Positions 38,855 to 51,212 of a DNA stretch of 64,000 nt are shown piece after piece (within the stretch, counting starts at the first letter, position 1; every line of letters starts with the position of its first letter). The notes beneath the pieces are model-generated. The model saw only the letters and a list, made by a program, of their open reading frames with translations. It had not been told where the DNA came from and ran no database searches. The translations under genes were made by a program, and so were the position numbers. The stretch is from NCBI RefSeq assembly GCF_000332095.2, contig NZ_KI913949.1, positions 1,636,511 to 1,700,510 of the forward strand, read 5' to 3'. This DNA is from Leptolyngbya sp. PCC 6406. GTDB taxonomy: Bacteria; Cyanobacteriota; Cyanobacteriia; Phormidesmidales; Phormidesmidaceae.

Positions 38855-40129
38855 TCACCCCTGATGTTCAACCGTAGCGGGCATTTGTTGAATGATTTTC
38901 ATTGTTTTGACGCTGACGGTGCAAACCCGTTGTAGCAAATCGATGACGTGTTCTTTGTAGTCGGCAAATTTGTAGGTATTGAACAGTTTGGCGATTGTCG
39001 GGTCTTTGGGTTTCTTTTCTTTGTATTGGTCAAGGATCCATTCTAGGGCGGAGCGATTGCCCAGTTTGTAGTCCCAGGCAAGGGCAGGTACTCCGGTGAG
39101 TTGGGTGTTTTCGTCTAGGGTGATGATGCCTTGGGGTTTGTCGGCTTTGAGTTTGGCTTTGGGCTTTTCTTTGCTGGCGATATCTTGACGGTTTAGCCCA
39201 TAGGGTTCGATGGTTTCGTAGTTCAGGTGCAAGTCCATCAGGGCTTTGCCCCAGGTTGCCCATTGGTGAAAGTCGGCATAGAAGGGCAGGCGGGGAAATT
39301 CGCGTTTGAGGTTGAGTTCGTATTTGGTGCGGTAGGCGGGATGGTGGAGAACGGCGTAGGTGTAGTGGAAGATAGCTTCTTTGGTGATGGTGGGATCGCT
39401 GTAGTGGATCTGGAATTGGGTTAAGCCCCAGTCGGTGATGTTGTCGATGCGGTTCCCGTTTTCGTCGTAGCGGTAGAGGGGAAGACATTGAGACCCGCCA
39501 TTTGGGAGCACATCTGGAATGTGTTCTACAGCCAAACGAAAGTATGGCGCGTCTATTCCTGACTTTATCCAGATAGCTTGATTAGCCTTTTTTGCCGACG
39601 GAAAAATATTTGGTAATTGATACGTCCTGCCATTAAAGTTCTTATCAAAATAAAGATATTGCTTGGCATAAGGACGGCAGCAACTCTTGATGATTTTTCC
39701 TTCTTCAAAAGTCTTTTTTGTTTTTCGTTCTAAATACTTTTCAAGATCCGCATCCCACTTGATATCTAACTCTCGCCTTACTCCATTCTCCAGTAGATCG
39801 TCATACACCTCCACAAAATACTTCATTCGCTCAATCAGAGCTTCTTTTGAGAAGTCATAAACCCACTCATCTCGCTGAGTTTTGACCCCTGCCGAAAAAA
39901 GCTGAAAAACTGCCTTTTGCAATTTTTCAGCCTTCACCTTTTTATCAATCAACGGCAAAAAGCTATCAAAATCGTTATCGGTTAAATTAATCCAATTTGC
40001 TTTTTGGTCAGGCGTAATGTGGTCAAATGGAATCGCTTCAAATCGGGCACGATCGAACCAGTCGAGCTTTCCGTCCTTCGTCTGCTCATCCTGCAAGGTA
40101 AAGTAGAAGATTTTTGCTCTCATACTCAA
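38855..40129 (-). pseudogene. Type ISP-like restriction-modification enzyme, C-terminal (target-recognition) part
   Basis: An open frame of 424 residues starting RAKIFYFTLQDEQTKDGKLD, which is the continuation expected after the methyltransferase core of single-chain type ISP (type I-like, single polypeptide) enzymes. It includes the LAVEHIPDVLPNGGSQCLPL and PLYRYDENG segments before the recognition domain. Its 5' neighbour is a TA pair, on the far side of which the methyltransferase continues (40682-41003). The gene is therefore separated from its catalytic part and presumably inactive, unless the pieces associate. Confidence 0.78.
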
Positions 40130-40377
40130 GAAGCCTTCGATTCAGGTTGATAGGCAAACACATCCACAGAAATAGATTTAAGCGGTTGTGTCTCGCCATG
40201 CAGCATCACGCGAATCCGTTCAGTCGTTTCTCGACTAAAGATCTCTTCGCCACAATGAGAACATGCCGTTACTGGAATTTTCTCAACTAAATAGAACTTT
40301 CCATCAATCTGAAAAATCTCATTGATCAACTCTTGATGGCAGTCTTCTGAATTGCAAACATGGCACTTAAACATCAT
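40126..40377 (-). CDS. YgiT-type zinc-finger antitoxin-like protein
   Basis: 83 residues with two CxxC pairs, MFKCHVCNSEDC and ACSHCGEEIFSRETTERIR, the zinc-binding YgiT/MqsA N-terminal type. It lacks the long DNA-binding C-terminus of MqsA. It overlaps the upstream DUF4258 gene by 4 nt and runs into the restriction-modification C-terminal frame, which begins within 4 nt of its end. The partner order (toxin then YgiT) is the usual one for this pair. Confidence 0.85.
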   Translation of the reverse strand: MMFKCHVCNSEDCHQELINEIFQIDGKFYLVEKIPVTACSHCGEEIFSRETTERIRVMLHGETQPLKSISVDVFAYQPESKAS

Positions 40378-40685
40378 TTTCTCCTATTTCTATAATCAAT
40401 CCACTCTTGCTCATCCGGTTCATAAACCGTAATGATTTTCGTAAGGTCTGACTCCATTCTTGAAACTTGAATATGTAGAGCGCGATCGCTTTTTGCAAAG
40501 CCTAACAAAAGACAACTGGGAGAATATTTATCATCTGGATAATCTTCAATCACCTCTACATTCTCAGCAATCTCTCGAATTTCTTGATCGCTAATATTTC
40601 GTTCGATCGCTCTCTTAAAAGCATGACGTGTAAATTCAAAGCTACCTGCTTTAAATTGCTGTTGAATCTCTGAAAGGGATTTCAT
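40374..40685 (-). CDS. DUF4258-family putative toxin
   Basis: A 103-residue protein with FTRHAFKRAIERNISDQEIR, a conserved Cys-rich strand (SPSCLLLGFAKSDRALHIQV) and TKIITVYEPDEQEWIDYRNR. These are the DUF4258 features, a RelE/MqsR-like fold that pairs with YgiT proteins in TA modules. Start ATG 40685 overlaps the stop of the upstream methyltransferase fragment (GCATGA). The pair is embedded in a restriction-modification gene. Confidence 0.87.
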   Translation of the reverse strand: MKSLSEIQQQFKAGSFEFTRHAFKRAIERNISDQEIREIAENVEVIEDYPDDKYSPSCLLLGFAKSDRALHIQVSRMESDLTKIITVYEPDEQEWIDYRNRRK

Positions 40686-41003
40686 GCCGCTTTCCCGCTC
40701 TCTTTTCGTGTTCTCACCAGAAACATCACTGCAATTCCAGTTTGAATGCCAAACACATTATTTTTAGTACCAGATATTTTAGGATTATTTCTTACATCCG
40801 ATTGGGTATCGACAATATAGACATAATCAAACTCGCGATCGACGCACTTACGGAAGCCATCAAAGGTTTTGGAGTCGATAAACGATCGATTGGCAATGAA
40901 GGCAATGATGCCGTTTTGACCCAGCCTATCCGATGCCCAGCGAAAGAATCGGGTATACATATCGTAGACAACAATCTGATTTTGAGCGGTTCCCTCTTTG
41001 ATA
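40682..41003 (-). pseudogene. Type ISP-like restriction-modification enzyme, middle (methyltransferase) part
   Basis: From the insertion-sequence end, the frame reads YIKEGTAQNQIVVYDMYTRF, GIIAFIANRSFIDSKTFDGF and NVFGIQTGIAVMFLVR, which are methyltransferase motifs downstream of NPPY. The open frame extends to 41083, but the first about 27 residues are insertion-sequence DNA. Removing the element joins it exactly to the upstream part (KETY+IKEG). Confidence 0.85.
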
Positions 41004-42020
41004 TAGCGGATTTCATAATTATGCGGCACAATAGCAGCAATGGGTGAACCAGCTTTTAATGTCCGCTTCAGAGATGTCCTCAAAGGCTATTTCAAGGGCT
41101 TCTGATAGCGCTTGATAAGTCCGTGCCCCCAGTGCCCTGAGAATTGACTTTAGCTTTGACCAAAAGTTCTCAATCGGCGAGAAGTCCGGCGAATAGGGCG
41201 GCAGATATACCAGACGTGCCCCTGCGGCCTCAATCAACTCCCGAATCATGTCGTCCTTATGAATGGAACAGTTGTCCATCACGACACAGGCCCCTGGCCA
41301 AAGGTTGGGCACCAGGCGAGTGGCCACAAATGCCTCAAAACTCAAGCCGTCAAAGGCTCCTAAAATCACCGCCGAAGCCACTACCCCAGCCAAGCTTAAC
41401 CCTGCCACCAGGGACACATTCTTCCCCCGCTTGGGCTGTTCTCCATAGGCTCGTCGGCCTTGCAGCGCCCAGGCAAACAACCGAATCAACCCCAGATTAA
41501 TCCCCGACTCATCGATAAACACCAAGTCTTCAACTCGGATGTCTCGAATCTCATCCCAGTACTCCCCTCGCAACCGCTGTACCCGATCACTCACCTTGTC
41601 ACTGGGGTGAAGGGCTTTTTTTTTACGGGTGAACTGAAGCCGCTTCATCACCCGACACATCGTGGATCGACTCACCGTCACCCCATACTGTTGAGCCACT
41701 TCGGCGCGAAGCTCATCTAAGGTCAGATCAGGGTTCGCTTCAACGAAGGCTTGAACCCTCTGCATCTGCGCCTCATCCAGTTCCCTCGGTCGCCCAGGAC
41801 TGGTCTTGGGGGCAAGCTCACCCGTTTCCCGATACTGCTTCAGCAGTTTCACGATAAAACTTAGAGTCACTCGAAATCGCTGGGCTAACTGGCGCTGCGA
41901 AATGCGCTCGTTCTCATAGGTCTCAATAATCTTCTGTCGCAAATCGGTGCTGTAGGCCTTCATCGGCTCCTCGCGCTTTTTCTACCCGCTATTCGTACCA
42001 CATCTTTGTGAAATCCGCTA
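41004..42020 (-). mobile_element. IS630-family insertion sequence (intact) inside the restriction-modification gene
   Basis: A 1017-bp element bounded by TAGCGGATTTCATAATT on the left and the inverted TAGCGGATTTCACAAAG on the right, with duplicated TA at 41002-41003 and 42021-42022. Deleting element plus one TA restores GGAAACCTATATCAAAGAGG in the host gene. The terminal TAGCGG matches the ends of miniature element C (56039-56140, 57724-57825). Confidence 0.93.
41019..41963 (-). CDS. IS630-family transposase
   Basis: A full-length 314-residue transposase. The N-terminal helix-turn-helix halves (RISQRQLAQRFRVTLSFIVK and TLDELRAEVAQQYGVTVSRS) bind the terminal repeats. The DDE catalytic triad is complete: DLVFIDESGIN, ACVVMDNCSIHK and PPYSPDFSPIENFWSKLK. 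The open frame is unbroken, so the element could still be active and could mobilise related miniature elements. Confidence 0.95.
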   Translation of the reverse strand: MKAYSTDLRQKIIETYENERISQRQLAQRFRVTLSFIVKLLKQYRETGELAPKTSPGRPRELDEAQMQRVQAFVEANPDLTLDELRAEVAQQYGVTVSRSTMCRVMKRLQFTRKKKALHPSDKVSDRVQRLRGEYWDEIRDIRVEDLVFIDESGINLGLIRLFAWALQGRRAYGEQPKRGKNVSLVAGLSLAGVVASAVILGAFDGLSFEAFVATRLVPNLWPGACVVMDNCSIHKDDMIRELIEAAGARLVYLPPYSPDFSPIENFWSKLKSILRALGARTYQALSEALEIAFEDISEADIKSWFTHCCYCAA

Positions 42021-43448
42021 TATAGGTTTCCTTAATCGCTTTATCAATGCCTTTGTAGAGACGATTGGCATTGCGTTGGTTAAAGTTTTCTTGATGGGCG
42101 TTGTAGGGCGGATTGCCGATAATGACGGAGATGGTGCGATCGTTCTGCTCTGAATACGTGCCGTGTTTTGCACACTCATCGCAAACAGATCAAACTGCTT
42201 TCCTTCAAAGCCACAGTGATCCAGCGTATCCACTAAACAAATATTTTTGAATTCTTCGTACTTTCCCATCTTTTGCTGATAGGTAAATTCAATATTCAAA
42301 TTGGCAATGTAATAGGGCAAAATCGCCATTTCATTACAGTGAATTTCATGTTTATATTTATGCTCCAGCTTATCCGCTGGCAAATATTCGATCAGTTCTG
42401 TCACATAGGTGCCTGTCCCCGTACAGGGATCCAGAATTTCCACCCCTGGATCGCTCAACAACTTGCCAAAGTGTTTATGGGTCAAGTAATCCGCACTCTC
42501 AATCATGAAGCGGACAATTTCATTGGGTGTATAGACAATCCCGAGCCGATCCGCTGCCTTGGGGTTGTAGGCTTTGTAAAAGTTTTCGTAGATCGCTTTA
42601 AGAAACTTCTGCTTTTCGTGGTGGTTGGCAATGTTTTCCGAATGGCGACGAATCACCGCATAGTAGTGTTCGATGCTCTTGAGCGTATTGCGACGGGTGT
42701 TTCCGGTAAAGAAAGTGTTGATAATTTCCGATAGTTCCCGCGCAATATTGTTTTCGCGGTGAAACTGCGATTCATGGAAAATATTGGTAAAAATATCCTC
42801 CGTGAGAATGTGCTGAATCAACATCTCATGGATGTCGAAGATCTCAATTTCAGGGTTGATTGACTGGCGACAAACCTCCAGGAAGGTATTGCGACGTTCT
42901 CTAAATTGGGTATTGTTCTCCTCCTGCTGAGCAATAATGCTCCGCAGAGCTTCCAAAATATACGGGACATCTTCTTTGAATTTGACGATCGCTGCCCGAA
43001 AATCCCGCACTTCAGGGCGTTCATAGTCTACAAACGTGTTGATTAGCCCATCTAGCGCCTCCGCATCCCCCATGGAAACGCGCAACTGCTCTCGACTGTG
43101 CTGAATCAGGACGGCAGTTTGGGAGTCTTCAAAGAGAATATTTTCGTCGGGGTAGCCCTTCTCCAGTTTCTTCTCAATCTCGTCGTCAAGTTTGTCGTAC
43201 TGGTCTTTGCTCTCCCACCAGCCATGCTCCAGGCGGATGGCATCCTTCACCGTGCCATCGGGAAAAACCGTCGTATTGAACTTGGTCTTAAAGTCCAGTT
43301 CTGGGATCAGCAGATAGTTGTGGGGTTTGCAGTAGTCATTCAACAATCGCTCAAAGGCATTGCGAATGCTGGTTTCCTTTTTGGAGCCCCCATAGCGGAT
43401 GATTTTTTCGACCTCTGCCTGGTACTGTGTCACCAGCAATCTAGACAT
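42018..43448 (-). pseudogene. Type ISP-like restriction-modification enzyme, N-terminal part (frameshifted)
   Basis: ATG 43448 begins MSRLLVTQYQAEVEKIIRYG. The nuclease-type region (YLLIPELDF ... AIRLEHGWWESKDQYDKLDD) is followed by a helical coupler and the methyltransferase entry RLGIVYTPNEIVRFMIESAD with SAM motif ILDPCTGTGTYVTEL. After LDHCGFEGKQFDLFAMS the frame breaks near 42145-42165. The real continuation (EQNDRTISVIIGNPPYNAHQ, with catalytic NPPY) lies in another frame and runs to the insertion sequence at 42020. This is the first of three lesions in the gene. Confidence 0.88.
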
Positions 43449-43482
43449 AAGCGGACCCAAGGGTATCAATTCAAGGGTAGCG

Positions 43483-43617
43483 TTAACGGGAATGGGGTTC
43501 TAGGGCAGGTGCGCCAACAATGCGATCGCGGCCTGCATCTTTAGCCCGGTATAGCGCCATGCCAGCAGCCTTCAGCAGATCCTCGATCTGTATATCCTGG
43601 TAACCGTATGCCTTCAT
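43483..43617 (-). pseudogene. C-terminal remnant of a GGDEF domain
   Basis: A 44-residue frame (MKAYGYQDIQIEDLLKAAGM..) contains ALYRAKDAGRDRIVGAP, the hallmark C-terminal helix of diguanylate cyclases (ADMALYRAKxxGRNR). The catalytic part is absent. Its ATG overlaps the stop of the NAD-kinase-like gene (ATATGA). It is probably the tail of a gene truncated when the neighbouring cassette arrived. Confidence 0.7.
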
Positions 43618-44552
43618 ATCACTAGATGCCCTTTTCTGGGGGCGATAGAGATAGTCGCTTCTGTGCCTGAGTTGAAGCGCAGAAAGTCCGACTCTATCCC
43701 ATCGCTGAAAATAACACCGTTTTCCGGCATCTGAGAAGCAATAATGAGCGGCTGATCTCGGGTCACCTTGCCAAAGGTGATCGCCGCCCCGGAAGTCTTA
43801 CTCGGCCACGGTTCACGTACCGAGAAATAAAGGTAGTCAGCATCCCACGCAACTGACTTTGGCCCGTCGATCTTCGGCTCATGCTCCGATAGGGCTGAAG
43901 TAACGCCTATCGCCCCAGCCAAGACGCTTCGCAGCCAGCCCGTAGATCCAAGACCTGTTGAGACGATGATTCCACTTGATGAATGATACTCTGTCTTCTC
44001 ACCAAGCCGGAGCCTGTAGCGGGCTGACGTGTGCGATCGCGGACCAATGAACAAATCGTTCACCGCCGAAATACTTTCACCATTGTTAAGTTTTGCTTCT
44101 GCGATCGTCACGTCGGCCACTGGTCGCTTTTGCGCGAAAACCTCCGGTATAACGAGATCAAGGTCTCCCACCGTAAACGGCAACAGAACGCCTTCCCACC
44201 TTTGCGTATCCGGGTTAACGCCAACAAGCGGTTGATCCTCAAGATACTTGAGAACATTTGCCACCAAGCCATCTTGCCCAATAGCAACTACTGTGTCCCT
44301 TGGCCCGAAGATGAAGTTCGGCAAAAATGTACGGTCTACAACTTGAACAAGACCATGACGAGAAAGCAAGTTCTCGGTCTCCATAACAACCCGCTTGTAG
44401 ATGCGATCCTCAGCTTGGTAGTCAGAAAAGTCTGCGCCCAAATGCTCAATGTAGAATCGCGCCTGGTCCTCAGTATTGAATCGAGCAATTAGTTCATCCA
44501 AGCGAGTGCGGCGGACAACTAACACAACCTTATTCTCTGTCTGTCGATCCAT
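43614..44552 (-). CDS. NAD-kinase-superfamily protein paired with an SPFH protein
   Basis: About 312 residues. An NAD-kinase-like fold is visible through VVAIGQDGLVANVLKYLE (in place of GGDGT), a Gly-Val-Asn turn (LVGVNPDTQ), NDLFIGPRSHTSARYRL (NE/D region) and SGIIVSTGLGSTGWLRS (in place of the TPTGSTAY motif), with the C-terminal beta block ENGVIFSDGIESDFL. The first 60 residues are an extra N-terminal domain. The altered nucleotide-binding motifs mean it may not phosphorylate NAD. ATG 44552 overlaps the SPFH stop (TGATG), indicating translational coupling. I know no described function for such a pair. Confidence 0.75.
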   Translation of the reverse strand: MDRQTENKVVLVVRRTRLDELIARFNTEDQARFYIEHLGADFSDYQAEDRIYKRVVMETENLLSRHGLVQVVDRTFLPNFIFGPRDTVVAIGQDGLVANVLKYLEDQPLVGVNPDTQRWEGVLLPFTVGDLDLVIPEVFAQKRPVADVTIAEAKLNNGESISAVNDLFIGPRSHTSARYRLRLGEKTEYHSSSGIIVSTGLGSTGWLRSVLAGAIGVTSALSEHEPKIDGPKSVAWDADYLYFSVREPWPSKTSGAAITFGKVTRDQPLIIASQMPENGVIFSDGIESDFLRFNSGTEATISIAPRKGHLVI

Positions 44553-45574
44553 CACTTGGCATGGTCTCGGTGGAGTAGCTCACGCAACAGTTCTGGTGAA
44601 ATGTTGAGCTGGCCGATTTTGTCCGAGCTTTCCGCAAGCTCCTTGAAGGCCAGTGCAACAAGTTGTCCAGGTTCCATGCCAACACTGGTCAGAGCCTGAA
44701 GCATTTTGGGATCAGTCCCAGCCAGAGCCCTCATCACGGCTGCAATAGCATAAGCCTTGGCATCCGCTTCCGCACGGGCATTGGCCGTAGATAGCGCAAC
44801 AAACTCTCTATTCTTCTCCTCTAACGCAATCTTGGCTGCCATTTCAGCCTCTCTAATCTCTCGCTTCTTCTGCTGGACAGATTTCTCTGCCTCCATCTGA
44901 GCCTCTTTGATCTGCCGCTTCTTATTCTCCACAGCAATCTCGGTATTCAGCTCATTCTCTTTAATGCTCCGCTCTTGTTCCACGGCGGCGTTCCGTCGAG
45001 CGTAGATAGCTTCATCGGCCTCGCGGAGAATCTGCTCACGTGCCTCTGCTTCCAGCGCCCGCGAAGTTTCCGGTGTCGGCTTGATCGCTAGGATCGAAAG
45101 CCCAAGGATTTCAATACCAAGCGAAGCAATGACTTCCGCCGACTGAAGTCCGTCACGCAGTGTTGAAACCAGAGTATCCGATTGCCCCAATGCATCCCTG
45201 AGTCGAAGCGACTTCAGGCATGTGCGAGTGAGAACCTGCGTGTGATTGATAAGCCGTAGCGGCAGCTTCTTTGGATCCTCGGACGCATAGTCCCTTCCGT
45301 GTGAAGCAAGCGTGAAATTCATGAGCTGGGATAATTTTTTGGCCTCCGCGACCCGGTAAGTCAATTGCCCCTGAACCGTAACCGCTTGGAAATCCGCTGT
45401 GACTTCTTCGAAAATGAATGGCACATCCACGCTGCCAATGGGGATACGAACGAGCGATGTGGTCGGCGCAAAATAGAAAAAGGATAGCCCTGCTCCTTCG
45501 CGCACAACCTGGCCTCGTTTGAACTGGAGAACGAAATCCGTGGGTCCAACTCTGATAAATCGTATACCGAGCAT
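44552..45574 (-). CDS. SPFH (band 7/stomatin-like) domain protein
   Basis: 340 residues. The N-terminal SPFH domain (about 5-190) begins IRFIRVGPTDFVLQFKRGQV and contains FQAVTVQGQLTYRVAEAKKL and SLGIEILGLSILAIKPTPE. A long charged coiled coil follows (about 190-285; iterated E/K/R/A with KKRQIKEAQMEAEKSVQQKK), then a small C-terminal helical part. No transmembrane anchor or signal peptide is visible, unlike classical stomatins, so membrane association would be peripheral. It is the upstream gene of a coupled pair with the NAD-kinase-like protein, beside a broken restriction-modification locus. Scaffold function is inferred from the family. Confidence 0.85.
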   Translation of the reverse strand: MLGIRFIRVGPTDFVLQFKRGQVVREGAGLSFFYFAPTTSLVRIPIGSVDVPFIFEEVTADFQAVTVQGQLTYRVAEAKKLSQLMNFTLASHGRDYASEDPKKLPLRLINHTQVLTRTCLKSLRLRDALGQSDTLVSTLRDGLQSAEVIASLGIEILGLSILAIKPTPETSRALEAEAREQILREADEAIYARRNAAVEQERSIKENELNTEIAVENKKRQIKEAQMEAEKSVQQKKREIREAEMAAKIALEEKNREFVALSTANARAEADAKAYAIAAVMRALAGTDPKMLQALTSVGMEPGQLVALAFKELAESSDKIGQLNISPELLRELLHRDHAK

Positions 45575-45695: not shown

Positions 45696-47750
45696 CTAGG
45701 ATGCTGACCAGAGACCTAGGTTTTCGGCTAAGAAAGCCCACTTATCAGCTACCTCTTCAATCACTTTGGTAATGGGTTTGCCTGCGCCGTGGCCTGCCTT
45801 TGTTTCAATGCGAATCAGCACTGGAGCTTCTCCCCCATGGGCGGCTTGGAGGGCGGCGGCGAATTTGAAACTGTGGGCGGGGACGACCCGATCGTCGTGG
45901 TCGGCGGTGGTGATCAGGGTGGCTGGGTAGGCGGTGCCGGGAGTGAGGGCGTGGAGGGGGGAGTAGGCATAGAGCGCCTTGAATTCCGCCTCATCTTGGG
46001 GGGAACCATATTCCGACTCCCAGGCCCAACCGATGGTGAACTGGTTGAACCGCAGCATGTCCATGACCCCAACGGCGGGAAGGGCCGCTGCAAATAGGTC
46101 GGGGCGCTGGGTCATGCAGGCTCCCACCAGTAGGCCACCATTGCTACCCCCCATAATGGCAATGCGATCGCAACTCGTATACTTCTGGGCTATTAGCCAC
46201 TCAGCGGCGGCAATAAAGTCATCGAACACCGTTTGCTTCTGCAACTTGGTGCCCGCCCGGTGCCAGTCCTCCCCATATTCACCGCCCCCCCGCAGGTTGG
46301 GGACTGCGTAGATGCCCCCCATCTCTAGCCACACTAGATTGCTGACGGAAAAACTGGGGGTGAGGGAAACGCCGAAGCCGCCGTAGCCATAGAGCAGGGT
46401 AGGGTTCTGGCCATCCAACTCAATCCCGCGCTTGGCGGTGATGAACATGGGCACCGGAGTGCCGTCACGGCTGGGGTAAAACACCTGGCGGGTTTCGTAG
46501 TCGGCGGGGTTAAACGCCACCTGGGGCTGGCGGTAGAGGGTGCTCTCCCCCGTCACCATGTCATAGCGGTAAATGGTGTTGGGGGTGGTGAAGCTGGTGA
46601 AGCTATAGAAGGTTTCCCGGTCTCCCCGCTTGCCATCAAAGCCGCCAGCGGAGCCGATTCCCGGCAAGTCCACCGCTCGCACGAGTTGACCCTGGCGGTC
46701 GAAGATCTGGATCTGCGATCGCGCATCCTGCAAATAATTCGCCACGAACTGATCATTGAGAACACTAATGTCCTGGAGGGTATCCGCCGCCTCGGGAATC
46801 ACCTCCTGCCACTGGTCCCGCTGGGGCTGGGTTAGGTCAATGGCGACCAAACGACCCTTATCGGCGTTCAAGTCCGTGCGGAACCAAAAGCAAGAACCCT
46901 CATTGTCCACGTAGCTGTATTCCGCTTCAAACACTGAGATCAGCTCCACCACCGCACTGTCGGGCTGGCTCAGATCCTTGTAAAACACCAGATTTCGGGG
47001 CTCTGTTCCCCGCCACACAGAGATCACCAGATAGCGACCATCCTCGGTGACATTGCCGCTAAAGCCCCACTCCTTCTGATCGGGACGCTCATACACCAGC
47101 ACATCTTCAGCTTGAGACGTGCCCAAGCGATGGAAATAGAGCTTCTGGTAATAGTTCACCGCCTCCAGTTGGGTGCTGGCGTCGGGCTCATCGTAGCGGC
47201 TATAGAAAAAGCCCTGGTGGTCATGGGTCCAGGAGACCCCCGAGAATTTTACCCATTTCAGGTGATCCGCTAGATCAACCCCACTGTCAATCTCCCGTAC
47301 CTTCCACTCCATCCAGTCGGAACCGGACACAGAGAGACCATAGGCCAGATAGGCTCCGTTCTCACTGATGGCGATGGCACTGAGGGCAACGGTGCCATCC
47401 TCCGACAGGGTATTGGGATCGAGCAAAATCTGGGGTTCCGCCTCCAGGGTTGGCAGCGTGTAGAGGACACTCTGGTTTTGCAGACCATCATTTTTGTAGA
47501 AAAAATAGCGATCGCCCCGCTTAAAGGGAATACCGTAGCGTTCGTAGTTCCATAGCGCCGTCAGCCGCGACCGAATCCGCTCCCGCCCCGTCAATTTCCC
47601 CAAGTAGTCAAAGGTGATCTGATTCTGGGCCTCGATCCAGGCTTGGGTTTCGGCACTGTGGGCATCCTCCAGGCAGCGGTAGGGATCTGGCACCTCAACG
47701 CCGTGGTAGGTGTCAATGTGATGGCTTTGGGGGGGATGGGGGTAGGGCAT
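45696..47750 (-). CDS. Prolyl oligopeptidase family serine peptidase
   Basis: 684 residues from ATG 47750 (MPYPHPPQSHHIDTYHGVEV followed by PDPYRCLED). The N-terminal part and the seven-bladed propeller (about 75-410) gate the active site; the alpha/beta hydrolase domain follows. The catalytic triad is intact: Ser536 in IMGGSNGGLLVG, Asp619/620 in TADHDDRVVPAHS and His654 in KAGHGAGKP. The family cleaves short peptides after proline; a cytoplasmic location is likely, as no signal peptide is seen. The longer frame to 47873 passes through GTGATGGGG simple repeats and is rejected. Confidence 0.95.
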   Translation of the reverse strand: MPYPHPPQSHHIDTYHGVEVPDPYRCLEDAHSAETQAWIEAQNQITFDYLGKLTGRERIRSRLTALWNYERYGIPFKRGDRYFFYKNDGLQNQSVLYTLPTLEAEPQILLDPNTLSEDGTVALSAIAISENGAYLAYGLSVSGSDWMEWKVREIDSGVDLADHLKWVKFSGVSWTHDHQGFFYSRYDEPDASTQLEAVNYYQKLYFHRLGTSQAEDVLVYERPDQKEWGFSGNVTEDGRYLVISVWRGTEPRNLVFYKDLSQPDSAVVELISVFEAEYSYVDNEGSCFWFRTDLNADKGRLVAIDLTQPQRDQWQEVIPEAADTLQDISVLNDQFVANYLQDARSQIQIFDRQGQLVRAVDLPGIGSAGGFDGKRGDRETFYSFTSFTTPNTIYRYDMVTGESTLYRQPQVAFNPADYETRQVFYPSRDGTPVPMFITAKRGIELDGQNPTLLYGYGGFGVSLTPSFSVSNLVWLEMGGIYAVPNLRGGGEYGEDWHRAGTKLQKQTVFDDFIAAAEWLIAQKYTSCDRIAIMGGSNGGLLVGACMTQRPDLFAAALPAVGVMDMLRFNQFTIGWAWESEYGSPQDEAEFKALYAYSPLHALTPGTAYPATLITTADHDDRVVPAHSFKFAAALQAAHGGEAPVLIRIETKAGHGAGKPITKVIEEVADKWAFLAENLGLWSAS

Positions 47751-47754
47751 GGGG

Positions 47755-47790
47755 GGGTGATGGGGTGATGGGGTGATGGGGTGGGGGGGT
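47755..47790. repeat. GTGATGGG simple repeat
   Basis: Iterated GGTGATGGG units directly upstream of the prolyl oligopeptidase start, of the same type as the run before the glycosyltransferase at 5840-5884. Confidence 0.8.
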
Positions 47791-47940
47791 GATGGTGACA
47801 GGAATTTTGAATTTAATATCCCGTAGGGTGCATTCGCGAAGCAATGCACCGCAGAGATGCTGGCAAATCCCAAGATAATCCTTCAAAATCCGCCCTGCCT
47901 AGTGCCGGGGAATCCGGGGTTGGGCTCCTGGGAAATCCAG

Positions 47941-48109: not shown

Positions 48110-48844
48110 TCAGGGGGAAACCGTATCGGGATCGATGCCTAGCTCCCGCAGGCGAGCAGCCAGAGCTTCAGCTCGCTGGCGTTCCTGATTAGCCCGCTCT
48201 GCGCCAGTGGGTAGCAGACGGCCTTCGGAATCGCACCAGCGCAGCCAGGTACCGGGCTGATCTTCAAACATGCCTTCCCAAAGCACTAGCCCTAGGGCCA
48301 CATGTTCCAGAAAATACGGGGGCTCTAGGGGAATGTATTGACCACCATTAAGGGTGAAAACCCGCAACCGCTGACCATCCATGCGGGCCGCTTCCTGGAT
48401 CTGCTCGATGGGATCAAAGACTACGTAGTAGCTCACCCTCAGGCGGGCGTAGCGGTCCTTTTTCTCCTCTAGTTCCTTTCCCACCCGATTCGAGACAATC
48501 TCGATGGCCACGTCCGGGACTTTGCCCATTTCCCAGACAAAATAGGTGCGGTTGCGCTTCTGGCTCCAGTCGGCGGGCATCTGTACCCCCAAGCTGAGGA
48601 ACACACCGGGCACGATCTGTTCCTGGCGGGCAGTGTGGAAAAGGCCCACATTCGCGGCGGCGATGAAGGGTTTGGGTAGAACGGTGCCGCTGTAGAGGGG
48701 CTCCACCAGGAGTCGCTGCTGCTTTTCGCTCTGGAAGTTATCCACTGGGGTATCGTCCTCAATCACCAGATGGCTGATATCTGGGACTGGGATTTCGACG
48801 GTTTCCTCAGTGGTGACAGTAATTTCCACTGTGGATTCAGCCAT
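48110..48844 (-). CDS. Uma2-family (DUF820) PD-(D/E)XK protein
   Basis: 244 residues. The Uma2 nuclease-like fold shows FVWEMGKVPDVAIEIVSNRV with the acidic D...E positions, followed by KKDRYARLRVSYYVVFDPIE. The head (SHLVIEDDTPVDNFQSEKQQ followed by RLLVEPLY) is the usual entry of one Uma2 branch, and the C-terminus has the typical coiled segment ERANQERQRAEALAARLREL. The domain is highly multiplied in cyanobacteria; its target is unknown. Compared with the copy at 16393, this one looks complete. Confidence 0.92.
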   Translation of the reverse strand: MAESTVEITVTTEETVEIPVPDISHLVIEDDTPVDNFQSEKQQRLLVEPLYSGTVLPKPFIAAANVGLFHTARQEQIVPGVFLSLGVQMPADWSQKRNRTYFVWEMGKVPDVAIEIVSNRVGKELEEKKDRYARLRVSYYVVFDPIEQIQEAARMDGQRLRVFTLNGGQYIPLEPPYFLEHVALGLVLWEGMFEDQPGTWLRWCDSEGRLLPTGAERANQERQRAEALAARLRELGIDPDTVSP

Positions 48845-49103: not shown

Positions 49104-51212
49104 ATGGAGCAGGGCCGATACCACAGACAGCCCCTCAGGGCCAAGGAGGTGCTGCGACTCTACGCCGCCGGAGAGCGGGACTTTCGCGGCACGATTTTGC
49201 GCGGCGGCAATTTTCGCAACGCGAACCTGTCGGGAGCTGACTTCACCGGGGCGGATATTCGCAGCGCCCGGTTCGTCAACGCCACCCTGCACGGGGTCAA
49301 CTTTAGCCATGCCAGGGCCGGACTCCAGCGCCACTGGTGGATCGGGCAACTGGGGATTGTGGGACTGATTGCCGCCTTGTCTGGGTTTCTGCAAGCCTTG
49401 GGCGGAGGGATCATTGGCCGTGCTTTGATTGGTTCTGAACCCACTACCCAATCGGCTGGCATCGCGGCGCTCATTGTGACAGTTCTGGTCTTCTTTATCC
49501 TTGCCCGCCAGGGCTTTACGCTGAAGGCAATGGGGAGCGCCGCTTTTGCTTTTGCTTTTGCTGTACCTTTAACTGTCGTTATCGGTTTTGCTTTTACTAT
49601 AGTTATCGCTTTCGCCTTTGCTGTTGCTGTCGCTGGCGTGATCTTTATCGCTGTCGCTGTCGCTGTCAATGGCACTCTTGCTGCCATTGCCTCTGCCATT
49701 GTCGCTGTTGCGATTGCTAGCACTGAAGCTGGTGTTGACAATGTTGCTGTCACTACCGCTGTCACTGTTGCTGTTGCTAGCTTTGTCTTCTCTCTCTATA
49801 TCAATCGCTGCATCCATAGGGCCGACCCAAGGTTCGAGAACCTTCGCATTATTGGCCTTGCCTTCGCAGCCCTCGGCGGTACCGCCTTCAGCGGGGCTGA
49901 TCTCACCGAGGCCACCTTCGCCCAGGCTGGCCTCAAGAGCACCAACTTTGCCGACTCTCGGCAGCGCCCCACCACTTTTACCCGCGTCCGTTGGCACGGA
50001 GCCACCAAGCTCGCTCGCGCCCGCCTGGGCACCAGTAACCTGCAAAATCTCTCCATCCGCACCCTGCTCACCACCCTCCAGGGCAGCGACCAAGACTTCT
50101 CCCATGCTGACCTACGGGGGGCTAACCTGGCGGGGGCTCAACTGCATCGGGCTAACTTGACCGGAGCCAATCTCAACCGAGCCACGTTGCAGGGGGCAGA
50201 ACTGCAAGGGGCGCAGCTTTGGGAGGCCCAGTGTTTAGGCACAGACTTGACCCAGGCAGACCTGACCGGAGCCTGCATCGAAGCTTGGAATACCGATAGC
50301 AGCACCTGTCTCCAGGCGGTGCAGTGCGACTATATCTATCTGCTGCGAGATTACCAAGAGCGGCGGCCCAACAGTGGCACGTTTCAGCCGGGGGAGTTTA
50401 CCCAGCTTTTTCAAGAAGTACTTGAAACCATTGACCTAATTTTCCAGAACGGCATTGACTGGAAAGCCTTTACCCGCACCTTCCAGCAGGTGCAGGAGCA
50501 GCATCAGGAGACGGGGCTGTCGGTGCAAAGTATTGAGGCCAAGGGGGCAGGGGCGATGGTGGTGAAGTTGAACGCGGGGCCGGAGGTCGATCGGGCGGCG
50601 ATTCACCAGGAGTTTTCTGAGATCTATCAGGTGGCCTTGAAGGAGGCAGAGGCCCGCTATAAGGCCCAACTGGAGGCCAAGGATGACCAAATTTCTGAAT
50701 ACCGGCAGCAAAGTGCCAATATGCAGGAAGTGATGAAGCTATTGGCCAGTCGGCCTGTGACGGTGGATGTAACTGCGATCGCGGAGAGCAAATCAATGCA
50801 AGGTAATGACCACAGCCGGAATGTCAAAATTGGGGGTGATTTCAACGCCACCCACAGCAACGTCACCCTCAACCTGGGGGAAATCAGCGGGGAGGTGACC
50901 AACCAGATTGGCCAACTGCCAGACGGTGACGGCGGCGACCAGCCCAGCCTCAAAGATCTGCTGAGCCAACTTAAAGCCGCCATTGACAATGATGGGGAAC
51001 TGGACGACGACCTGAAGGCAGAAGCCCTCACCGCTGTGGGTCGCCTCGCCACCGTCGGGGCTAATCCCAATCCTGACCCTAAAACCAAAGGCATTGCCCA
51101 GCGGGCCACCGCCGCCCTCAAGGGCATTACCGATACCCTCAGCGATACCTCCAAGCTAGCCACCGCCGTCAAATCCCTGCTGCCGCTAGTTCTGGGGGTG
51201 CTGGCCCTATAG
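49104..51212 (+). CDS. Pentapeptide-repeat membrane protein with long low-complexity helices
   Basis: 702 residues. The first pentapeptide block (about 25-72: DFRGTILRGGNFRNANLSGA) is followed by about six hydrophobic segments (about 80-240), several of Ala/Val/Phe-only composition encoded by GCTTTTGCTTTT and GCTGTCGCTGTC microsatellite DNA. A second pentapeptide block (about 260-400: ANLAGAQLHRANLTGANLNR) follows, then a helical domain (YIYLLRDYQERRPNSGTFQP..GEFTQLFQEVLETID) and a coiled coil. Next is the motif RNVKIGGDFNATHSNVTLNL followed by GEISG, and a hydrophobic C-terminus. Similar C-terminal modules occur in cyanobacterial pentapeptide proteins from memory. No enzyme motif is seen; its role is unknown. 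Confidence 0.85.
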   Translation: MEQGRYHRQPLRAKEVLRLYAAGERDFRGTILRGGNFRNANLSGADFTGADIRSARFVNATLHGVNFSHARAGLQRHWWIGQLGIVGLIAALSGFLQALGGGIIGRALIGSEPTTQSAGIAALIVTVLVFFILARQGFTLKAMGSAAFAFAFAVPLTVVIGFAFTIVIAFAFAVAVAGVIFIAVAVAVNGTLAAIASAIVAVAIASTEAGVDNVAVTTAVTVAVASFVFSLYINRCIHRADPRFENLRIIGLAFAALGGTAFSGADLTEATFAQAGLKSTNFADSRQRPTTFTRVRWHGATKLARARLGTSNLQNLSIRTLLTTLQGSDQDFSHADLRGANLAGAQLHRANLTGANLNRATLQGAELQGAQLWEAQCLGTDLTQADLTGACIEAWNTDSSTCLQAVQCDYIYLLRDYQERRPNSGTFQPGEFTQLFQEVLETIDLIFQNGIDWKAFTRTFQQVQEQHQETGLSVQSIEAKGAGAMVVKLNAGPEVDRAAIHQEFSEIYQVALKEAEARYKAQLEAKDDQISEYRQQSANMQEVMKLLASRPVTVDVTAIAESKSMQGNDHSRNVKIGGDFNATHSNVTLNLGEISGEVTNQIGQLPDGDGGDQPSLKDLLSQLKAAIDNDGELDDDLKAEALTAVGRLATVGANPNPDPKTKGIAQRATAALKGITDTLSDTSKLATAVKSLLPLVLGVLAL

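What the first reader, a model, noticed from the sequence alone, without database searches (positions are those of the whole stretch)
43614..45574. Coupled SPFH protein and NAD-kinase-like protein: candidate undescribed two-gene system
The sequence shows a band-7/SPFH protein with a long coiled coil and no membrane anchor, followed by TGATG overlap with a protein that has the NAD-kinase fold but altered motifs (IGQDG for GGDGT, STGLGSTGW for TPTGSTAY). They sit next to a broken restriction-modification gene and a GGDEF remnant, as expected for an accessory cassette. SPFH proteins scaffold membranes or protein rings, and NAD metabolism is a frequent target in anti-phage defence, so a nucleotide-signalling or NAD-based conflict system is a reasonable guess. 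That function is inference.
Basis: partly seen in the sequence, partly recalled or inferred. Interest (0 to 1): 0.75.

Follow-up and report, generated by a model that had tools for sequence, protein, structure and literature searches.

The report
SPFH scaffold coupled to NAD-kinase-like enzyme

Summary
The pair is real, intact and tightly conserved. SPFH (45574-44552, minus strand, 340 aa) overlaps the kinase-like gene (44552-43614, 312 aa) by one base (TGATG). SPFH lies upstream in 79 of 80 related genome loci (the 80th starts at a contig end) and beside the kinase in all 21 positives from 1,088 sampled genomes. In both phyla tested both ways, the two genes occur in exactly the same genomes (12/398, 2/292).

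The kinase is an outlying NAD kinase, closest in sequence and modelled fold to human mitochondrial NADK2 (Z 26.9). It keeps the catalytic Asp and NADK2's active-site signature but not the canonical motifs. The host also has two ordinary NAD kinases.

The context is NAD metabolism, not defence: 38 of 80 loci hold NrtR (ADP-ribose-responsive repressor) or NAD-salvage/ADP-ribose genes, against 0 of 35 random stretches. Where NrtR is divergent, most SPFH promoters carry tandem palindromes. The window copy lacks both and was probably acquired horizontally.

I read it as an NAD(P)-replenishing module: an NADK2-like kinase held by an SPFH assembly. Enzyme activity, ring formation and protein contact are inferred. 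The anti-phage reading is not supported.

The parts
44552..45574 (-). SPFH (Band 7) protein, 340 aa, no N-terminal membrane anchor, long coiled-coil helix
43614..44552 (-). NADK2-type NAD-kinase-like protein, 312 aa; catalytic Asp D94, N165-D166, S192-S193-G194, T199-G200-L201-G202
44550..44554 (-). TGATG overlap of SPFH stop and kinase start (translational coupling inferred)
43483..43617 (-). context: C-terminal GGDEF remnant abutting the pair
45696..47873 (-). context: prolyl oligopeptidase gene upstream of the pair; no NrtR gene and no tandem palindrome in the gap between them

Best explanation
The pair is an accessory NAD(P)-supply module. The second protein is a bacterial NADK2-type kinase that most likely makes NADP(H) from NAD(H). 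The first is a soluble SPFH protein that most likely assembles into a ring or cage and positions or regulates the kinase; making both from one overlapping message would keep them in step. In many hosts the module sits in the ADP-ribose-sensing NrtR regulon: when NAD is consumed and ADP-ribose rises, NrtR would leave tandem operators in front of the SPFH gene and the pair would be made alongside NAD-salvage enzymes. The window copy has no NrtR beside it and no such operator, so it runs under other control. Shown: the pair, its conservation, co-occurrence and adjacency, the NAD-kinase fold (by model), the NAD-gene context, the operator-like palindromes. Inferred: kinase activity and substrate, ring formation, physical contact, repression by NrtR.
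For: SPFH upstream in 79/80 loci and beside the kinase in 21/21 unselected positives; identical genome sets when searched from either gene (and 74/78); kinase start within 20 nt of the SPFH stop in 42/51; correlated divergence r 0.70. NADK2 as nearest fold and sequence; invariant catalytic Asp and NADK2-like SSG/TGxG signature. NrtR identity; NAD-salvage and ADP-ribose neighbours, 38/80 versus 0/35 random stretches; tandem palindromes before SPFH in most NrtR-divergent loci. Host already has two canonical NAD kinases.
Against: Second Gly of GGDG is Q/R in all 68, so donor or substrate may differ. 42 of 80 loci, including nearly all Paenibacillus, show no recognised NAD gene nearby (some have short flanks). 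The window copy lacks NrtR and operator. The operator motif was read from the same promoters it was scored on. No activity, oligomer or interaction was tested; a two-chain model could not be run.
Confidence: 0.6

Rival explanations
1. Kinase with another substrate: a NAD-kinase-fold enzyme that phosphorylates another molecule of the salvage or ADP-ribose pathway (for example nicotinamide riboside, NMN, ADP-ribose or a sugar; RefSeq calls it 'sugar kinase'), scaffolded by SPFH.
For: Motif changes GGDGT to G(Q/R)DGL and the canonical Asp of (A/G)DG to Ser; salvage-gene neighbours; two canonical NAD kinases already present in the host.
Against: SSG and TGxG are shared with NADK2, an established NAD kinase (PMC8553519), and the fold is closer to NADK2 than to any other structure. 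No sequence link to a riboside or sugar kinase family.
Confidence: 0.2
2. Conflict or defence system: the pair is induced by ADP-ribose when NAD is destroyed or proteins are ADP-ribosylated during phage attack, and restores or withholds NAD(P).
For: Patchy, plasmid-borne distribution; ADP-ribosylglycohydrolase and macro neighbours; NrtR-type regulators with ADP-ribosylglycohydrolases have been proposed as counter-viral systems (PMC9503650).
Against: No PADLOC model hits; only sporadic defence genes among 146 neighbours; no phage carriage; salvage enzymes are among the recurrent neighbours, and all NAD-related families together reach 38 of 80 loci.
Confidence: 0.12
3. The kinase-like protein is a catalytically dead NAD(P) sensor that controls an SPFH assembly acting in protein or membrane quality control.
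For: Second Gly of GGDG replaced by Q/R in all 68 relatives; many SPFH proteins act with proteases or membrane partners (established knowledge of HflK/C and prohibitin).
Against: The catalytic Asp is invariant in 68 of 68, unusual for a dead enzyme; no protease or NfeD-type gene stood out among the neighbours.
Confidence: 0.08

Closest known systems
Human mitochondrial NAD kinase 2 (NADK2/C5orf33; PDB 7r4j-m, 7n29)
   Same: Nearest sequence profile hit (E 2.4e-14) and nearest fold (Z 26.9 over 290 residues); SSG and TGxG active-site signature; catalytic Asp
   Different: About 20% identity; GQDGL instead of GGDGT, ND instead of NE; bacterial; always paired with SPFH in the samples examined
Canonical bacterial NAD kinase (NadK/PpnK, PF01513/PF20143)
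   Same: Same fold, catalytic Asp in a GxDG loop
   Different: No Pfam hit; canonical motifs replaced; accessory and additional to two canonical copies in this genome
SPFH superfamily (stomatin, HflK/C, prohibitin, flotillin; soluble subfamilies SPFH8/SPFH9 of PMC2636767)
   Same: SPFH domain plus long coiled-coil; two soluble subfamilies without transmembrane segment are described in PMC2636767
   Different: No N-terminal anchor; partner is a NAD-kinase-like gene, not NfeD or FtsH. Whether it equals SPFH8 or SPFH9 was not tested
NrtR regulon of NAD metabolism
   Same: NrtR beside the pair in 29/80 loci with salvage genes and tandem palindromes
   Different: SPFH and NAD-kinase-like genes as members were not found in the papers searched; the window copy has lost or never had the NrtR link
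ARG-centred predicted counter-ADP-ribosylation systems (PMC9503650)
   Same: NrtR-type regulator with ADP-ribosylglycohydrolase or macro domain nearby in some loci
   Different: That paper's text has no SPFH or NAD kinase; nicotinate/nicotinamide salvage genes recur here

Membership tests
NAD kinase superfamily | NAD-kinase fold | tested here: met
   Model pLDDT 91.7; NADK2 Z 26.9, bacterial NADK Z 19-21
NAD kinase superfamily | Catalytic Asp in GGDG-type loop | tested here: met
   D94 invariant in 68/68, within G(Q/R)DG
NAD kinase superfamily | Canonical motifs GGDGT, NE, DG-TPTGSTAY | tested here: not met
   GQDGL, ND, SSG-TGLGSTGW; no Pfam match
NAD kinase superfamily | Phosphorylates NAD(H) | not testable with these tools
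   Needs an enzyme assay
NADK2 subfamily | Closest to NADK2 in sequence and fold, SSG/TGxG signature | tested here: met
NADK2 subfamily | Orthology in a tree with eukaryotic NADK2 | not tested
   No such tree was built; claim limited to 'NADK2-like'
SPFH superfamily | SPFH/Band 7 domain with C-terminal coiled-coil | tested here: met
   PF01145 E 1e-13; model and fold search
SPFH superfamily | N-terminal membrane anchor (most subfamilies) | tested here: not met
   Domain starts at the N-terminus; hydrophobic peak is a core strand; PMC2636767 describes two soluble subfamilies
SPFH superfamily | Assembles into large rings or cages | not testable with these tools
   Inferred from family
NrtR regulon | NrtR gene adjacent to the operon | tested here: met
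   29/80 related loci, 0/35 random stretches; not so in the window
NrtR regulon | Palindromic operator in the promoter | tested here: met
   10 of 12 NrtR-divergent promoters reach scores matched by 7 or fewer of 500 shuffles; motif derived from the same set
NrtR regulon | NrtR operator before the window copy | tested here: not met
   Best tandem score matched by 259 of 500 shuffles
Anti-phage defence system | Match to a known defence model | tested here: not met
   PADLOC none for either protein
Anti-phage defence system | Defence-island neighbourhood | tested here: inconclusive
   Sporadic BREX/RM hits among 146 neighbours, no background rate measured
Anti-phage defence system | Protects against phage | not testable with these tools
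   Needs plating assays

The most novel reading that the evidence does not exclude
An ADP-ribose-triggered NAD(P) rescue machine: an SPFH cage that houses and gates a NADK2-like kinase, switched on when NAD is being destroyed (by toxins, NADase immunity or ADP-ribosylation), the first SPFH scaffold dedicated to a cofactor-making enzyme.
Probability: 0.15. Interest if true: 0.85.

Novelty: new variant of a known kind. Interest (0 to 1): 0.6.

Why it matters
It ties an SPFH scaffold, a protein class whose bacterial functions are mostly unknown, to one specific enzyme by near-perfect co-occurrence and overlapping genes, and it identifies a widespread bacterial NADK2-type kinase that exists beside the housekeeping NAD kinase. 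If right, bacteria make NADP(H) on a regulated protein scaffold that answers to NAD breakdown, which is directly testable. It would also correct the database label 'sugar kinase'.

Tried and rejected
Housekeeping NAD kinase: rejected; the genome has two canonical ones and 58 relatives lack this gene. Phage origin: no phage records, one end-of-contig viral hit. PADLOC and Pfam scans of 146 neighbours for a defence partner gave only sporadic hits. NrtR operator in the window: none. Two weak same-phylum hits (L097, L098; E about 1e-15) have no SPFH alongside; L097 matches an archaeal NAD kinase best, so I treat them as outside the family. A file of the whole genome was not available. Literature: no paper held SPFH + NAD kinase + defence, SPFH + anti-phage + NAD+, or NrtR + NAD kinase + regulon; other searches gave nothing on the pair; the original NrtR regulon paper is not held. 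The cyanobacterial identity of the host rests on 53 HIP1 sites (GCGATCGC) in 64 kb, not on a named record. A complex (two-chain) structure prediction was not possible with the tools.

Full report
Observation. The first is an SPFH protein by Pfam (E 1e-13), by model and by fold search, which returns stomatin, HflK/C, erlin, prohibitin, flotillin and vault protein. The SPFH strands begin within the first few residues, so there is no room for an N-terminal anchor; its one hydrophobic peak is a core strand of the domain. The second protein has no Pfam match and only weak NCBIfam and PDB matches to NAD kinases.

What the second protein is. A profile of 68 relatives finds human mitochondrial NADK2 in the PDB at E 2.4e-14. 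The predicted structure (mean pLDDT 91.7) matches NADK2 best by Foldseek and by VIA-align (Z 26.9, 290 residues, 3.0 A), above canonical NAD kinases (Z 21.5 and lower). Alignment with the host's own two canonical NAD kinases shows GGDGT replaced by G(Q/R)DGL, NE by ND, ADG/GDG by SSG and TPTGST by TGLGST. The last two changes are shared with NADK2. The catalytic Asp and most of these positions are invariant or nearly so across 68 sequences from many phyla, so this is a constrained subfamily, not a decayed enzyme. NADK2 is an established NAD kinase (PMC8553519); activity of the present family is inferred. That the Asp is catalytic is established knowledge of NAD kinases, not a result here.

The pair is a unit. 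A scan of genome contigs gave more than 550 relatives; the best 80 include Pseudomonadota, Bacillota, Verrucomicrobiota, Acidobacteriota, Calditrichota, Hydrogenedentota, Chloroflexota, Planctomycetota, Lentisphaerota, Myxococcota and Spirochaetota; a Streptomyces plasmid adds Actinomycetota. SPFH lies upstream on the same strand in 79 of 80; the exception starts at a contig end. In 42 of 51 measured cases the kinase start is within 20 nt of the SPFH stop. In phylum samples not chosen for it the kinase occurs in 2 of 292, 7 of 398 and 12 of 398 genomes (each sample includes the one genome at its centre that was known to be positive), and every one has the SPFH gene beside it. Searching the SPFH subfamily in the first and third samples returns exactly the same genomes. 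SPFH and kinase distance matrices correlate (r 0.70, 0 of 999 permutations as high), although shared species history contributes.

Context. Next to the pair many loci carry a Nudix-winged-helix protein over Pfam's NrtR_WHD and NUDIX cut-offs whose nearest solved relative is 3gz5, the Shewanella NrtR (E 8e-96 for the Methylomonas copy). It stays under the NCBIfam equivalog cut-off for the ADP-ribose-responsive repressor (262 of 400 bits), so ligand and target are inferred. Other neighbours are nicotinate phosphoribosyltransferase, nicotinamidase-type isochorismatase, a NadD/NadM-type nucleotidyltransferase, bifunctional NadM-Nudix, ADP-ribosylglycohydrolase and macro domain. NrtR is found in 29, and any of six tested families in 38, of 80 loci, against none of 35 random 15-kb stretches from seven genomes that carry the pair (Fisher p 4e-8; the 80 loci include related species, so p is only indicative). 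Where NrtR is divergent, the SPFH promoter shows two 17-bp palindromes of the form AGT-N11-ACT about 22 bp apart; in 10 of 12 such promoters 7 or fewer of 500 shuffles score as high, one has 15, and the Methylomonas promoter fails. I read the motif from these promoters before scoring it, so this is support, not proof. Mycobacterial NrtR leaves DNA on binding ADP-ribose (PMC6800001).

The window copy. Only 2 of 292 sampled genomes of its phylum have the pair, and none of 58 nearer relatives sampled; the tree places it with a Calditrichota sequence (98/88) inside a mixed-phylum group. There is no NrtR beside it (two NrtR-type genes lie elsewhere in the genome, one next to an ORF that looks like an adenylyltransferase) and no operator. 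GC is 52% against 54% for the window. It sits between a GGDEF remnant and a prolyl oligopeptidase gene. Horizontal acquisition is likely; the event was not mapped.

Mechanism. Shown: fold by model, conservation, gene coupling, co-occurrence, NAD context. Inferred: the kinase phosphorylates NAD(H); SPFH oligomerises; the two interact; NrtR represses. The simplest reading is a regulated, scaffolded extra NAD kinase supplying NADP(H) when NAD turnover is high. Why a scaffold is needed is unknown: membrane or complex localisation, or storage in an inactive assembly, are options. A Roseomonas relative adds a hydrophobic C-terminal tail to the kinase, consistent with a place at the membrane.

Defence reading. 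NAD context, patchiness and plasmid carriage are compatible with conflict, and NrtR-type regulators with ADP-ribosylglycohydrolases have been proposed as counter-viral systems (PMC9503650). But direct defence markers are lacking, phages do not carry it, and recurrent neighbours are salvage enzymes. I hold it at 0.12.

Novelty. No described SPFH-NAD kinase operon was found in the open-access papers searched. Subscription literature and the founding NrtR paper were not available, so an earlier mention is possible. The parts are known kinds; the combination and the bacterial NADK2-type family look new.

Noticed in passing
L007 (Proteus mirabilis), L005, L006, L008 (Acinetobacter, uncultured, Psychrobacter plasmids): Tetracycline resistance genes tet(J)/tet(H) with their tetR lie directly beside the kinase gene; Proteus has an intact NrtR-SPFH-kinase-tetR-tet(J) row, the small plasmids only decaying 3' pieces of the kinase gene, as if tet(H) was mobilised from such a locus.
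   Followed up: partly
window 38855-43469: A type IIG restriction-modification gene lies in pieces, with an IS630-type transposase (41019-41963) and a MqsA-like/DUF4258 toxin-antitoxin-type pair (40126-40685) between its halves.
   Followed up: partly
L011 6980-8167 (Roseomonas haemaphysalidis plasmid): The kinase relative carries a C-terminal extension with a basic, strongly hydrophobic stretch that looks like a membrane anchor.
   Followed up: no
PMC1524935, table of T4-like phage ORFs: T4-like phages 44RR, Aeh1 and RB43 list SPFH ORFs; in RB43 the SPFH ORF (139c) has the number next to a Nudix/cytidylyltransferase (NadM-type) ORF (138c), a possible second SPFH-NAD salvage link; the window SPFH finds no phage match at E 0.01.
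   Followed up: partly
L028, L043 and other Paenibacillus loci: Pair without NrtR; the promoters hold other AT-rich palindromes (e.g. TTGATAATATCAA), suggesting a different regulator.
   Followed up: no
L010 4162-7885 (Streptomyces yangpuensis plasmid): A divergent pair (35% identity) preceded by a YfbK-type von Willebrand factor A protein and no NrtR.
   Followed up: no
window 49104-51212: A 702-aa pentapeptide-repeat protein with a long hydrophobic region; a Uma2-type putative nuclease lies at 48110-48844.
   Followed up: no
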